Positions 1 through 5,501 of a DNA stretch of 6,076 nt are shown here, piece by piece. Within the stretch, counting starts at the first letter, position 1; each line of letters opens with the position of its first letter. The stretch comes from Nitrospinae bacterium RIFCSPLOWO2_12_FULL_45_22 (GTDB taxonomy: Bacteria; 2-12-FULL-45-22). Made by a program: the position numbers and the translations under genes. The DNA lies in contig MHDQ01000141.1 of assembly GCA_001803565.1 (NCBI GenBank), forward strand, positions 1 through 6,076, written 5' to 3'. The notes under the pieces were generated by a model that had not been told where the DNA came from, did no database searches, and saw only the letters and a program-made list of their open reading frames with translations.

Positions 1-831
1 TGGATCATACACGCTTTCGCCAGGCTTGGGGTCAAGCATTTCAACCATAAGCTTAATAACCTCCCTGGCGGTATAAACCTCCCCTTCTTTGGCTTTCTGG
101 GGGGCAAAATATCTTAGTAGCCATTCGTAGGCATCGCCAAGGATATCTGGGGATACATGGTGCAGGGACCTGGCGCTGAAAAGCTCTACAAGCTGCCGGA
201 GGATTTCTGCATTCTCTCTATTGGTAGTGAACTGGACAAAGTCTACATTCTCGAAGACATCCCTGAGCTCCGGGTTTCTTTCTGCCAGGGTCTTCATGGC
301 CTTGGAGAAGTTTTCCGTGAGCCTTGCAGGGTCTTTTCTGATAGGTTCCCAGAGCAGGGCTTCAGAAATATCAAAATCGTGGTAGATGGAGTTTTTAGCC
401 TCTACTTTTGCCTCTTCTTCATTGAGGCCATCAGCGATGGCTTCATTGTATGCCGATTCAAACTCCATCTCCCATCGGTCACTGATCCGTTTATAAAAGA
501 GGAGGACAAGGATAAAGGCATAATCTACCCTGGTTCTGATGAGGTCTGCCGCGGCCTTCAGGAGGCCCTCAATGTCTCCCCTCGAAAGCGTCTCAGATAA
601 TATCTGCTCCTTGCTTATCAGGTTATAAATCCTCTTTCGTGCATCGGCCGGGTCGAGTTCTACTTTTAACATCCCGCCCCTTCTTAATTCCGAGAGGATA
701 ACATTAATCTGATCCTCACTATCCTTATTCTTCTCTTTCAGAACCATCGCCGCATCGTCAAAGCAGAAAGAATGGGCTTGGAAGGTATCCCATAAGATTT
801 CATAGCGTTTATTAAGCCAATCGATTAGCAT
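1..831 (-). CDS. hsdM: Type I restriction-modification DNA methyltransferase subunit (HsdM), N-terminal part, cut by window edge
   Basis: The reverse strand reads open from ATG at 831-829 to the window edge, giving 277 residues with no stop. In the family HsdM forms the adenine-N6 modification core with the specificity subunit HsdS. Residues about 86-240 match the helical HsdM N-terminal domain (VDYAFILVLLFYKRISDRW, residues 102-120). Residues 252-277 (VYTAREVIKLMVEMLDPKPG, then ESVYDP) are the usual lead-in to SAM motif I (DPxCGSGG), which falls just outside the window. The catalytic NPPY motif and any hsdS/hsdR genes would also lie outside. Residues 1-74 are an extra domain ending LSELRRGGMLKVELDPADAR-KRIYNL, which looks like a winged helix and is not part of the classical enterobacterial protein. 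An AGAGG ribosome site (845-841) sits 9 bases before the ATG. Family assignment is firm; the role of the extra domain is inferred. Confidence 0.93.
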   Translation of the reverse strand, partial: MLIDWLNKRYEILWDTFQAHSFCFDDAAMVLKEKNKDSEDQINVILSELRRGGMLKVELDPADARKRIYNLISKEQILSETLSRGDIEGLLKAAADLIRTRVDYAFILVLLFYKRISDRWEMEFESAYNEAIADGLNEEEAKVEAKNSIYHDFDISEALLWEPIRKDPARLTENFSKAMKTLAERNPELRDVFENVDFVQFTTNRENAEILRQLVELFSARSLHHVSPDILGDAYEWLLRYFAPQKAKEGEVYTAREVIKLMVEMLDPKPGESVYDP

Positions 832-1131: not shown

Positions 1132-1179
1132 ATGATTTTAACTTTCTTTAGATATTGGGAGTATGCGTTTAGGACATGA
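1132..1179 (+). CDS. Possible 15-codon leader peptide, translationally coupled to the permease
   Basis: ATG at 1132 follows AAAAGGAG (1121-1128) by three bases, a good Shine-Dalgarno sequence at slightly short spacing. The ORF encodes MILTFFRYWEYAFRT and stops with TGA at 1177-1179, which overlaps the permease ATG (1176-1178) as ATGA. The permease start has no ribosome site of its own at a sensible distance: GGGAG is 14 bases away and AGG only 2. Termination-reinitiation coupling is therefore plausible. It could instead be a relic of a lost upstream gene or a chance ORF. The peptide has no recognisable domain. Confidence 0.35.
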   Translation: MILTFFRYWEYAFRT

Positions 1180-1985
1180 CCAGGGGCAAGCGGATCAAGG
1201 CAGTTATAAGGATGGAATGGACAAAGATTCGGGGTAAGAAGTCCGCCTTTATCCTGCCTCTGATAACGATGGCATTCGTCCTGCTAGCTGGCTATGGCTT
1301 CAAATTAGGGGTCACAGAGAAATTTATGGGCATAGAATCCGGCTTTTATCTGGCTGCTACTACTACCAATACTGCCCTATATATTCTGACGATATTGACT
1401 GTTGTGCTGGTAGCGGTGGCCGTAGGTAACGAATTTGTTGCTGGTACTATCAGATATATCCTCTCCCGGCCTATCAGGCGGGAAGAATGGCTCCTGGGCC
1501 ACCTGGCAGCCATGGTACTGATGGTAGTTATCCTGTACCTTATTATTATCCTCAGCGGGATTATCATTGGGGCCATCACCTATGGCTATTCCCCTTTGAC
1601 TGAAAAGGAATTCGTTATCCATTCCCAAAAAGAGTTATTTAACAAGCTCATAATAGCCCTACTCTTGCCTATCTTACCTTTGATCACCCTGGTTATTGCT
1701 ATAGAACTGGTTACTTTGGTGAGCGAGAGTCCGGGGACAGCAATTGGTATCGGGCTGGGTGCTGGGTTTGCTTTATCTATCCTGAGCAACCAGACCAAGC
1801 TGGGCCAATTCTTTTGGGCTAATTATATCTTCTCACCCCTGGAGGAGATGGAGAAGATGAGCAAAGGGCTCCCTACAGACTGGGGGGCTATTATTTGGTG
1901 GTCAATAGGGGTCTCGCTTATTACGGGGCTTATATTATTGGTTTCTTCTATTTACATTATAAGGCGCAAAGAGATCCTGGCATGA
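1176..1985 (+). CDS. ABC-2 type transporter permease (orphan, no adjacent ATPase)
   Basis: This 269-residue integral membrane protein has about six predicted transmembrane segments: residues 24-42, 66-84, 107-133, 157-183, 186-203 and 239-262. The basic N-terminus (TRGKRIKAVIRMEWTKIRGKK) fits the cytoplasmic amphipathic lead-in of ABC-2 permeases. The loop after TM2, GNEFVAGTIRYILSRPIRRE (84-103), matches the family pattern E-x-x-x-G-T-x-x-x-x-L-x-x-P-x-x-R, which contacts the ATPase. Such permeases need a separate ATP-binding subunit to export drugs, lipids or polymers, but none is encoded here; it may be elsewhere in the genome. Substrate is unknown. A stop codon (1170-1172) lies in frame just upstream, so ATG 1176 is the earliest start; M13 (1212) is an alternative. 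Its TGA overlaps the start codon of the next gene by 4 bases. Confidence 0.85.
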   Translation: MTRGKRIKAVIRMEWTKIRGKKSAFILPLITMAFVLLAGYGFKLGVTEKFMGIESGFYLAATTTNTALYILTILTVVLVAVAVGNEFVAGTIRYILSRPIRREEWLLGHLAAMVLMVVILYLIIILSGIIIGAITYGYSPLTEKEFVIHSQKELFNKLIIALLLPILPLITLVIAIELVTLVSESPGTAIGIGLGAGFALSILSNQTKLGQFFWANYIFSPLEEMEKMSKGLPTDWGAIIWWSIGVSLITGLILLVSSIYIIRRKEILA

Positions 1986-2551
1986 GGCTGGTTGATACCG
2001 CGGGTAGTGGCAGGTCTCCTGACCTGCCACTAAAAAAACCAAAATATAAAGAAGGTTATCATTTTATAACAATAGTGACAAATAAACGCATTGAAGTATT
2101 TAAATGCAAAGATATAGCCATGATAGCAGTAAGAACAATTCTATTCTATGAGAAGAGAGGGGATTTTAGACTTATAGGATTTATTGTTATGCCAGATCAC
2201 ATCCACATGATTTGCGAACCAGCGGGTAGTGACAGGTCTCCTGACCTGTCAAGTATTGTACGAGATATAAAGAAATACATTGCCAAAGAAGCAATCGGCT
2301 ATCTTTCATCGGGAGATAGTAATATGCTTGTAAGTATTCAATTGCCAAAACCCAAGAAGAAGGGGCATACCCATCAGTTATGGCAAACAGATTTTTATGC
2401 GTTTAATATACTTACTGAAAGTAAACTGAAGGAAAAACTGAGATATATGTATGAGAACCCGGTAAGGAAAGGCTTGTGTAATGATATATTTGATTATGAA
2501 TTTTCTGACATTAGGCGGTATTTCGGGGCAGTAGACCGGAAACTACCCTGA
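1982..2551 (+). CDS. REP-associated tyrosine transposase (RAYT, Y1/HUH transposase IS200-like superfamily)
   Basis: This 189-residue protein belongs to the single-strand DNA endonucleases that cut at hairpins and are thought to spread REP elements. Residues 26-34 (YHFITIVTN) form the first beta strand. MPDHIHMI (70-77) holds the HUH metal-binding pair H73 and H75. QLWQTDFYAFNIL (132-144) and YMYENPVRKGL (155-165) are the conserved C-terminal blocks; Y155 is the likely nucleophile by position. I chose ATG 1982 because the reading frame upstream lies inside the permease and no other ATG precedes the conserved strand. Two GTAG-hairpin repeats lie inside the gene and are translated in the same frame as AGSGRSPDL (residues 7-15) and AGSDRSPDL (81-89). 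The second falls between the HUH strand and the following helix, a loop that may tolerate insertion. GC content (about 22-38% in sampled lines) is well below that of the neighbours, suggesting acquisition. The catalytic residues look intact. Confidence 0.88.
   Translation: MRLVDTAGSGRSPDLPLKKPKYKEGYHFITIVTNKRIEVFKCKDIAMIAVRTILFYEKRGDFRLIGFIVMPDHIHMICEPAGSDRSPDLSSIVRDIKKYIAKEAIGYLSSGDSNMLVSIQLPKPKKKGHTHQLWQTDFYAFNILTESKLKEKLRYMYENPVRKGLCNDIFDYEFSDIRRYFGAVDRKLP
2004..2032 (+). repeat. REP-like element A: GTAG foot plus 12-bp perfect hairpin, inside the RAYT start
   Basis: GTAG (2004-2007) begins a perfect inverted repeat: arm TAGTGGCAGGTC (2005-2016), loop TCCT, arm GACCTGCCACTA (2021-2032). 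REP elements acted on by RAYTs typically have a GTAG-type tetranucleotide at the 5' foot of a hairpin, and this fits. It lies 19 bases after the permease stop and covers RAYT codons 8-17, so the mRNA hairpin might protect the permease transcript's 3' end or damp RAYT translation. That role is inferred. Confidence 0.75.
2226..2251 (+). repeat. REP-like element B: GTAG foot plus 9-bp hairpin, in the middle of the RAYT gene
   Basis: GTAG (2226-2229) precedes TGACAGGTC (2230-2238), loop TCCT, and GACCTGTCA (2243-2251). Compared with element A, one stem base pair has changed on both sides (GC to AT), so pairing is conserved. The flank AACCAGCGGG before GTAG also resembles that of element C. It sits exactly 222 bp, or 74 codons, from element A, in the same reading frame. 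Confidence 0.75.
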
Positions 2552-2572
2552 CAGAATAGGAACTTCCTTTTT

Positions 2573-2598
2573 TGCTGGGTCAGGAGACCCAGCACTAC
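2573..2598 (-). repeat. REP-like element C, inverted, just downstream of the RAYT gene
   Basis: On the minus strand GTAG (2598-2595) precedes TGCTGGGTC (2594-2586), loop TCCT (2585-2582), and GACCCAGCA (2581-2573). The stem sequence differs from A and B at several positions, yet all nine pairs are kept. The loop is identical in all three. It begins 22 bases after the RAYT stop and points opposite to A and B, so A and C bracket the gene as inverted ends. The mRNA hairpin would also lie between RAYT and the next gene. Confidence 0.75.
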
Positions 2599-2623
2599 CC
2601 CGCTGGTTGCTAGATAATGAGCC

Positions 2624-4156
2624 ATGAATAGATTCATTTATCTGATTATCTGGGGTATTCTGGGTACTATGTTGATATTGGTGCCAACCTCTGCCTGGGC
2701 ACTAAATTTCCTGCCCCTAGATTTATCGGTCGAAGGCCGGATAAAGGACCTGCGGGTAGAAGACCTTAATTATGATGGGCTTAAGGACCTGCTGGTGATT
2801 TATATCCAAGGATTACCGCCTAAAGAGAGCCGGTGGTTATCAATCTTTTGGCAAAAATCAGATAAATCCTTTAATTCAACCCCAGATCAGAGTTGGGAAA
2901 TAGCTCAGGAGGCAACTGTGTTGGATACTGGAGAAATATCAACCCAGTTCCCTGGCCGAGAGCTGGTCTTTCTTACCAATCAAGGGGTCAGCTTTTGTCG
3001 CCTCAGGGACAATCAGTATAACCCAGAGCTCATCCCTTTGCTTTCCCACTCAGTTTTTACCGCCTTTCCGGAAAAGAATAATTTACCTGTTACTAACTTC
3101 GTGCAGGACTGGAACCAGGATGGCCAGGAAGATATAGCTATCATGGATTTTGGCCGACTGGTAATCTTTTTGGGTGATGGTAAGGGCAATTTCCCTGAGC
3201 GCGATGAGCTAAAAATAGAGATCAAACCCTTTTATCTAGGCTATGACCCACTGGACAAGAGTAATGACCCTACCAAGATAGCCCTGTTCACCTCTACCTA
3301 TTTCTTCCCGGAATTGAACCTTAGGGATTATAATGGTGATGGTCATAAAGATTTAATGGCTATCCGTAACGATGTCCTTTATTGGTATGCGCATGATAAG
3401 GATGGTAAATTTGAGTCTTCCTTTACTAAAAAGGATTTCGATATTCAAACCGATGAAGAGAAACGGGAAGAACTGGTAAATATCAAGATGATGGTAGAGG
3501 ACCTGAATGGCGATGGTCTGGCTGATGTATTGATCAACAAGCAAAAAACCCGGGGCCTTACCAGCTTATACAGCCTGGTAAGCATCTTTTATCACCGAAA
3601 AAATACTGGTATATCTTCGGTCCCCCAACAGATTATCACTACCGAAGGGACGGCCTCAGTAGCTATGGTGATCCGGGACTTGAACCGGGATGGCCGGCAA
3701 GACCTTATCCTGCCATCCTTTGAATTTGGCTTAGGGGCTGTTATTAGATATTTCTTTACTAAAAAAATTAGGGTAAGCTTCCTGGTCTACTTGATGAGGG
3801 AGGATGGCCGTTATCCAGATAAGCCCGATCTAGAAAAAGAGATCAGGTTCAAGATTGATCTTTCGGGCCAATCTAACCTGGCAGTAATAGACCCCGATGG
3901 TGACTATAATGGTGATGGGGTAAATGACCTGGTCTTTGGCACCAGTGATGACGAGCTTTCTATCTTTCCCGGGGTTAAAGACCCCCTTAAGAGCAACAGG
4001 ATATATGAAGATGATCCACTTTTACGGCTCCAAATCAATACCCTGGGGTATCTTATTGCTTCTGACCTGGGCAATAAAGGGAGGAGTGATATCATCCTCT
4101 ATTATCCTCGAGAGCCAAAGCTATGGAGCAAGATCAAGCTCCTATTGAATAGATGA
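2624..4156 (+). CDS. Secreted VCBS/FG-GAP repeat protein, probable beta-propeller
   Basis: This 510-residue protein begins with a Sec signal peptide: N-terminal MNR, a hydrophobic core (residues 4-22) and an A-x-A site with likely cleavage after A26 (TSAWA). The mature part carries calcium-binding-type D-x-N-x-D-G repeats at residues 47-52 (DLNYDG), 162-167 (DWNQDG), 235-240 (DYNGDG), 293-298 (DLNGDG), 352-357 (DLNRDG) and 427-432 (DYNGDG). Each is followed by a D-hydrophobic strand. A degenerate seventh occurs at 481-489 (DLGNKGRSD). LGDGKGNF (183-190) is also typical of VCBS repeats. Six or seven such repeats fit a beta-propeller exposed in the periplasm or outside the cell, as in integrin-like FG-GAP domains. 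No enzyme motif, anchor or sorting signal is visible after the signal peptide. Ligand and role are unknown. The ribosome site is weak. It follows REP element C by 25 bases, so its link to upstream genes is uncertain. Confidence 0.85.
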   Translation: MNRFIYLIIWGILGTMLILVPTSAWALNFLPLDLSVEGRIKDLRVEDLNYDGLKDLLVIYIQGLPPKESRWLSIFWQKSDKSFNSTPDQSWEIAQEATVLDTGEISTQFPGRELVFLTNQGVSFCRLRDNQYNPELIPLLSHSVFTAFPEKNNLPVTNFVQDWNQDGQEDIAIMDFGRLVIFLGDGKGNFPERDELKIEIKPFYLGYDPLDKSNDPTKIALFTSTYFFPELNLRDYNGDGHKDLMAIRNDVLYWYAHDKDGKFESSFTKKDFDIQTDEEKREELVNIKMMVEDLNGDGLADVLINKQKTRGLTSLYSLVSIFYHRKNTGISSVPQQIITTEGTASVAMVIRDLNRDGRQDLILPSFEFGLGAVIRYFFTKKIRVSFLVYLMREDGRYPDKPDLEKEIRFKIDLSGQSNLAVIDPDGDYNGDGVNDLVFGTSDDELSIFPGVKDPLKSNRIYEDDPLLRLQINTLGYLIASDLGNKGRSDIILYYPREPKLWSKIKLLLNR

Positions 4157-5450: not shown

Positions 5451-5501
5451 GTAGTGGTCGAGCTTGCTCGACATTTCTAGCAGAGCAAGCTCTGCCACTA
5501 C
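5451..5501. repeat. Paired REP-like element (BIME-like): two GTAG hairpins in opposite orientation
   Basis: Outer inverted repeat GTAGTGG (5451-5457) and CCACTAC (5495-5501) encloses two hairpins. Hairpin 1 is GTCGAGC (5457-5463), loop TT, GCTCGAC (5466-5472). Hairpin 2 is GCAGAGC (5480-5486), loop AA, GCTCTGC (5489-5495). Each has GTAGTG at its own 5' foot, on the plus strand for hairpin 1 and the minus strand for hairpin 2. The minus-strand text GTAGTGGCAG is identical to the start of element A in the RAYT gene. Two inverted REPs side by side is the classic BIME arrangement. Confidence 0.72.

What the first reader, a model, noticed from the sequence alone, without database searches (positions are those of the whole stretch)
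1982..2606. RAYT gene carrying and bracketed by its own probable REP recognition hairpins
Three hairpins lie within or beside the transposase gene, all with GTAG at the 5' foot and the same TCCT loop. Their stems differ at several positions but always with compensating changes (TGGCAGGTC, TGACAGGTC, TGCTGGGTC and their partners). Compensated stems with invariant foot and loop are what one expects of a structure recognised by a protein. Flanking by inverted REPs is established for RAYTs; what is unusual is that two of the copies lie within the coding sequence. The pairing of this RAYT with this hairpin family is inferred.
Basis: partly seen in the sequence, partly recalled or inferred. Interest (0 to 1): 0.75.

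Follow-up and report, generated by a model that had tools for sequence, protein, structure and literature searches.

The report
RAYT transposase gene with in-frame REP hairpins
A small bacterial transposase-like gene carries copies of the DNA hairpin it probably acts on inside its own protein-coding sequence; the hairpins are real and track the gene across distant bacteria, but this habit was already described for one branch of these enzymes.

Summary
A RAYT/TnpA_REP gene (1982-2551, +) carries GGGTAG-footed, 9-bp-stem, TCCT-loop hairpins: two direct copies inside the CDS (2002-2029, 2224-2251) and one inverted copy downstream (2573-2600). Covariation is strong and the family is dispersed in the genome (16 hits). 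Four other genomes carry this RAYT clade: two Syntrophia-like genomes and two Schekmanbacteria, one of the latter with a decayed gene. All four have REPs at both ends of the same ORF. The middle of the gene holds 0, 1, 2 or at least 5 copies, in frame. REP abundance tracks the RAYT: 5 of 5 genomes with it have at least 10 hits; 31 without it have 0-2. Most dispersed copies are foot-to-foot pairs; some sit in frame in host genes (uvrA, putA, a SAM-hydrolase-like gene). The RAYT core is under purifying selection, and REP-coded segments are predicted floppy tails or loop. However, in-frame REP insertions within tnpA_REP genes were reported in 2018 as the hallmark of TnpA_Y1 subclass 2.4, and intragenic REPs (uvrA included) in 2013. 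Verdict: real, well supported, new member of a known kind. Binding and cleavage are inferred.

The parts
1982..2551 (+). RAYT / TnpA_REP (Y1 HUH single-strand transposase), 189 aa; HUH motif MPDHIHM, WQ, catalytic Tyr155 in YMYENP
   Evidence: NCBIfam NF047646 E 2.9e-29, Pfam Y1_Tnp 8.7e-7; 4er8 match; dN/dS about 0.13 in the core
2002..2029 (+). REP hairpin H1, direct, inside the CDS at the N-terminus (codes GSGRSPDLP); left end of the unit
   Evidence: identical 28/28 in the two Schekmanbacteria RAYT genes
2224..2251 (+). REP hairpin H2, direct, in frame inside the CDS between strand b3 (HUH) and helix aC (codes GSDRSPDLS)
   Evidence: absent in L044, 2 copies in L043, at least 5 in L045/L046
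2521..2548 (-). REP H4, inverted and decayed, forms the C-terminal codons of the CDS (FGAVDRKLP); right end of the unit
   Evidence: 2 mismatches to the motif; the intact copy is identical in L043, L044 and L045; R1 E 0.001 genome-wide
2573..2600 (-). REP hairpin H3, inverted, intergenic, downstream of the RAYT; resembles half of a dispersed foot-to-foot pair
1176..1985 (+). ABC-2 type permease gene upstream; its stop codon overlaps the RAYT start (ATGA)
   Evidence: Pfam PF12730 3.1e-11
2624..4156 (+). FG-GAP repeat protein gene downstream (context only)
   Evidence: Pfam PF13517 5.2e-26

Best explanation
This is a REPtron: a single-copy RAYT (TnpA_REP, closest to the published subclass 2.4) with its cognate GTAG REP family. 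REP copies form both ends of its reading frame and are also inserted in frame in the linker after the HUH motif. Inferred mechanism: the protein binds the single-stranded hairpin with its 5' GTAG foot, cuts next to it through Tyr155, and spreads REPs as foot-to-foot pairs into intergenic sites and now and then, in frame, into genes, its own included. Insertions in its own gene persist because they code for disordered segments, and the middle ones multiply as 45-nt (15-codon) units. Shown here: gene identity, hairpins, covariation, co-occurrence, in-frame positions, copy-number variation, purifying selection. Inferred: binding, cleavage, and that this RAYT moves these REPs.
For: Family and fold. 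REPs in the same ORF in four further genomes, L043, L044, L045/L046 and L178. Co-occurrence: R1 hits 16, 12, 39 and 28 in RAYT genomes (E<=1), 27 in G085 (E<=0.05), 0-2 in 31 others (RAYT presence; Fisher p 2.7e-6 if genomes were independent). N-terminal REP identical over 28 nt between the window and L044 although dS of the core is about 1.2, so the REP is kept or refreshed as DNA. Foot-to-foot pairs with spacers of 0-4 or 19 nt dominate. REP-coded residues 5-16 and 183-189 have pLDDT below 50, and H2 codes the loop between b3 (73-80) and aC (89-110). In-frame insertions in host genes. The published description of subclass 2.4 matches.
Against: No biochemistry. The genome also holds 68 copies of another GTAG palindrome (GAGCAAGCTC family) that this RAYT might or might not serve. 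HUH and Tyr motifs (DHIH, YMYENP) differ slightly from the published 2.4 consensus (NH[IFV]H, YIxNNP). RAYT genomes are few and two pairs are relatives, so co-occurrence is not fully independent. G071 has two REP-like hits and G067 one, without this RAYT.
Confidence: 0.86

Rival explanations
1. The hairpins in the gene are regulatory RNA elements: hairpins in the mRNA bound by the RAYT, or slowing ribosomes, that autoregulate the transposase.
For: REPs at the N- and C-terminal ends of the ORF are kept in all five genes, and H1 is unchanged at the nucleotide level although synonymous sites have diverged.
Against: The middle copy is absent in L044 and runs to at least 5 in L045/L046, so it is not required. 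The same elements are dispersed as inverted pairs between and inside unrelated genes. None of the hairpins scores as a terminator.
Confidence: 0.08
2. The repeats are kept for the peptide (GSGRSPDLP), as a protein linker repeat; the DNA palindrome is a by-product.
For: The repeats are always in frame in the RAYT, and units of 45 nt (15 codons) multiply inside the ORF.
Against: Paired stem changes alter the peptide while keeping base pairing. The family occurs intergenically and, in host genes, in other frames and orientations giving other peptides. 45- and 36-nt units also lie downstream of the stop codon.
Confidence: 0.03
3. The RAYT acts on another REP family of the genome (the 68-copy GAGCAAGCTC palindromes), and the TCCT-loop hairpins near it are bystanders.
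For: Family of 68 copies with a GTAG foot in the same genome, one pair in the window; the only other RAYT found there (L002) has different flanks.
Against: In five genomes of three lineages this RAYT clade is bounded by and filled with the TCCT-loop family, which is virtually absent where the clade is absent. The assembly is 85% complete, so another RAYT may be missing.
Confidence: 0.05

Closest known systems
TnpA_Y1 subclass 2.4 REPtrons (Quentin et al. 2018, PMC6006769; listed there as Bertels group 4)
   Same: REPs flank the gene and are inserted in frame inside it, between HuH and Y (between b3 and aC), with variable number and length; patchy distribution over phyla; protein length about 190 aa; WQ motif.
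   Different: HUH here is DHIH rather than NH[IFV]H, Tyr motif YMYENP rather than YIxNNP. Here REPs also form the N- and C-terminal codons of the ORF. Hosts include a Syntrophia-like lineage and Schekmanbacteria. Subclass membership was not tested with the published profiles.
Intragenic GTAG REPs (Di Nocera et al. 2013, PMC3733652)
   Same: GTAG REPs and dimers inserted in frame into genes, uvrA included; REPs overlapping RAYT gene ends.
   Different: Different hosts and stem sequence; some host genes here (putA, SAM-hydrolase-like) do not appear in the passages read.
Rickettsia palindromic elements (RPEs)
   Same: Palindromes inserted in frame in many protein genes.
   Different: No dedicated transposase is named for RPEs in the passages read; here the REP family tracks a RAYT.
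E. coli TnpA_REP (4er8) and its REP/BIME family
   Same: Same fold, HUH and Tyr aligned, GTAG foot, hairpin, inverted pairs.
   Different: E. coli REPs have a bulged stem (PMC8266576); here stems are perfect and REPs lie inside the gene.

Membership tests
RAYT / TnpA_REP | Y1 HUH transposase domain with HUH motif and catalytic Tyr | tested here: met
   NF047646 E 2.9e-29, above cut-off; HIH and Tyr155 conserved in the alignment to 4er8; fold match 4er8 E 1.8e-9
RAYT / TnpA_REP | Gene flanked by REPs in inverted orientation (REPtron) | tested here: met
   H1 direct, H4 and H3 inverted; same in L043, L044, L045, L178
RAYT / TnpA_REP | Cognate GTAG-footed hairpin dispersed in the host genome | tested here: met
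   16 hits in G000, controls 0-1
RAYT / TnpA_REP | Protein binds and cuts single-stranded REP at a nearby dinucleotide | not testable with these tools
   needs biochemistry; shown for other RAYTs (PMC8266576)
TnpA_Y1 subclass 2.4 | REP insertions within the tnpA_REP gene that keep the reading frame, between HuH and Y | tested here: met
   H2 between b3 and aC
TnpA_Y1 subclass 2.4 | Motifs NH[IFV]H, WQ, YIxNNP | tested here: inconclusive
   WQ met; DHIH and YMYENP each differ by one or two residues
TnpA_Y1 subclass 2.4 | Groups with subclass 2.4 in the phylogeny or profiles of the authors | not tested
   reference set not held; plasmid homologs found are mostly from Bacteroidota and Cyanobacteriota, which is only suggestive
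IS200/IS605 insertion sequence | Multi-copy autonomous element moving as a unit | tested here: not met
   one copy per genome; same neighbouring genes in related genomes (L043 and L045/L046; L044 and G085)

The most novel reading that the evidence does not exclude
The element is a coding-through REPtron: one open frame runs from the left-end REP to the right-end REP, so the transposon ends are translated, and the protein has been shaped to tolerate, or to use, its own REP insertions (for example to limit its own expression or activity as copies multiply).
Probability: 0.12. Interest if true: 0.55.

Novelty: new member of a known kind. Interest (0 to 1): 0.36.

Why it matters
It supports a RAYT-REP pairing by covariation and co-occurrence in lineages known here only from metagenome-assembled genomes. 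It also gives a natural series of one gene with 0, 1, 2 and at least 5 internal target copies, which could show what self-insertion does to a RAYT, and it ties in-frame palindromes in host genes to a candidate enzyme.

Tried and rejected
Terminators: rejected, no T-run after any of the stems. Rfam: no match. Chance hairpins: rejected. Viral origin: no relative in viral contigs. Plasmid homologs are only 24-30% identical. Several distant RAYTs (L047-L050, L052, L089, L090, L173, L002) were scanned for GTAG hairpins inside the CDS; none showed the nested pattern of this clade. That scan was crude and found no ORF for several loci. The claim that the N-terminal REP is always translated was narrowed: in G085 an ATG lies after the REP, and 14 masked bases in L044 could hide the same.

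Full report
Observation. The window is G000:C141, in a 3.67-Mb assembly that is 85% complete. The ORF 1982-2551 starts with the ATG that overlaps the stop codon of an ABC-2 permease gene (ATGA) and ends 72 nt before an FG-GAP protein gene. It matches NCBIfam REP-associated tyrosine transposase (E 2.9e-29) and Pfam Y1_Tnp. A fourth, decayed inverted copy (2521-2548) forms the last codons. All share foot GGGTAG; the three intact ones share inner stem GGTC/GACC and loop TCCT.

Structure, not chance. On 18 copies from four genomes (16 distinct) the 9-bp stem has 91.7% standard pairs and covariation 0.531 against 0.170 in shuffles. The outer five pairs vary with compensation and the inner four barely vary. 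On 126 model matches the values are 91.0% and 0.527 against 0.177; those rows were aligned to the model, so they lean towards it.

Related genes. One search found close relatives in a Syntrophaceae MAG (L043, 75% identical), a Schekmanbacteria MAG (L044, 66%) and a deltaproteobacterial MAG (L045 and L046, read here as the two ends of one gene split at contig ends inside a repeat). All carry REPs in the ORF: one or two direct copies at the N-terminus, an inverted copy that codes the C-terminus (YFGSGDPKLP), and in the middle 0 (L044), 1 (window), 2 (L043, one decayed) or at least 5 (L045/L046) copies, the multiples spaced 45 nt apart. A second Schekmanbacteria genome (G085) keeps a copy beside the same neighbour gene that has lost its middle, including the catalytic Tyr, but still runs in one frame from REP to REP. 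The RAYT is therefore inherited in place within lineages and shared between distant ones.

Selection. dN/dS of the core outside the REPs is 0.13 between L043 and L045/46 and 0.135 between window and L044. The N-terminal REP is identical over 28 nt in window, L044 and G085, and the C-terminal REP is identical in L043, L044 and L045, although synonymous sites between the distant genes are heavily diverged. The REPs are kept, or renewed, as DNA.

Co-occurrence. With covariance model R1 the genomes with the RAYT hold 16 (G000), 12 (G060), 39 (G061) and 28 (G062) hits at E<=1, while eight others hold 0-1 at chance level. The model was built from copies of G000, G060 and G061, so some of these hits are its own training rows; the dispersed copies in G062 and G085 are not. 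In the class of G060 (23 genomes) only the two RAYT holders are rich (10 and 25 at E<=0.05). One other genome has 2 hits, one has 1 and 19 have none. In the phylum of G061, G061 and G085 have 31 and 27 and the other two none. Taken together this is 5 of 5 against 0 of 31 (Fisher p 2.7e-6 if independent).

Arrangement. Dispersed copies are mostly foot-to-foot pairs (hairpin-CTACCC-GGGTAG-hairpin) with spacers of 0-4 or 19 nt; G061 also has tail-to-tail pairs. The RAYT unit has the feet outside. The pair therefore looks like the junction of the two ends of such a unit; that relation is suggestive only.

In-frame insertions in other genes. Most copies are intergenic. In G000 a REP pair lies in frame in uvrA and others in a SAM-hydrolase-like gene and a pilin-like gene; in G061 one lies in the putA linker and one near the end of a NuoM-like gene. 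Alignment to solved relatives shows an added 19-residue stretch in the SAM-hydrolase-like protein and unaligned inserts or linkers in UvrA and PutA. The names of the pilin-like and NuoM-like proteins were read from sequence, not searched.

Structure of the protein. An AlphaFold2 model (mean pLDDT 81.5) puts REP-coded residues 5-16 and 183-189 in stretches below 50, and H2 in the loop between b3 and helix aC. The best fold match is TnpA_REP bound to a REP hairpin, 4er8.

Prior art. Quentin et al. [quoted passage not shown] Di Nocera et al. 2013 (PMC3733652) report intragenic GTAG REPs, uvrA included, and REPs overlapping RAYT ends. The kind is therefore known. New here, as far as the papers read show, are this clade, its hosts, the copy-number series and the co-occurrence test.

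Limits. Cleavage and mobility are inferred from other RAYTs (PMC8266576). Subclass membership rests on the insertion site and partial motifs. The N-terminal REP is surely inside the translated part only in window and L043, and the second copy in L046; in the Schekmanbacteria a start after the REP is possible.

Noticed in passing
window 5451-5501: A different GTAG palindrome pair downstream of gpsA (GTAGTGG...GAGCTTGCTC / GAGCAAGCTC...CCACTAC); the pattern occurs 68 times in the genome against 0 for the control. No RAYT for it was identified.
   Followed up: partly
L002 (G000:C49:7499-7933): Second RAYT of the same genome, 27% identical, with different palindromes nearby (GGGTAGGC...GCCTACC).
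   Followed up: partly
L126 647-715 (G061:C144): A 69-nt mini-element: left REP, 13 nt, right REP with the same stem (TTTCGGGTC) as the RAYT C-terminal REP; looks like an internally deleted copy of the RAYT unit at another site.
   Followed up: partly
window 1987-1994 and 2602-2609: The 8-mer GCTGGTTG flanks the whole RAYT unit in direct orientation, next to the right foot; part of it recurs inverted before H2. Unexplained; Y1 transposases are not expected to make target duplications.
   Followed up: no
L154 (G062) and L196 (G067): The same decayed REP lies at what looks like the same site in two genomes, one of which lacks this RAYT: perhaps an old insertion that outlived the gene.
   Followed up: partly
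L045 506-650 and L043 3124-3196: Further REP units with 45- and 36-nt spacing lie just after the RAYT stop codon, partly in the same frame as the RAYT.
   Followed up: no
window 1-831 (-): A type I restriction methylase (HsdM-like) gene cut by the end of the window.
   Followed up: no
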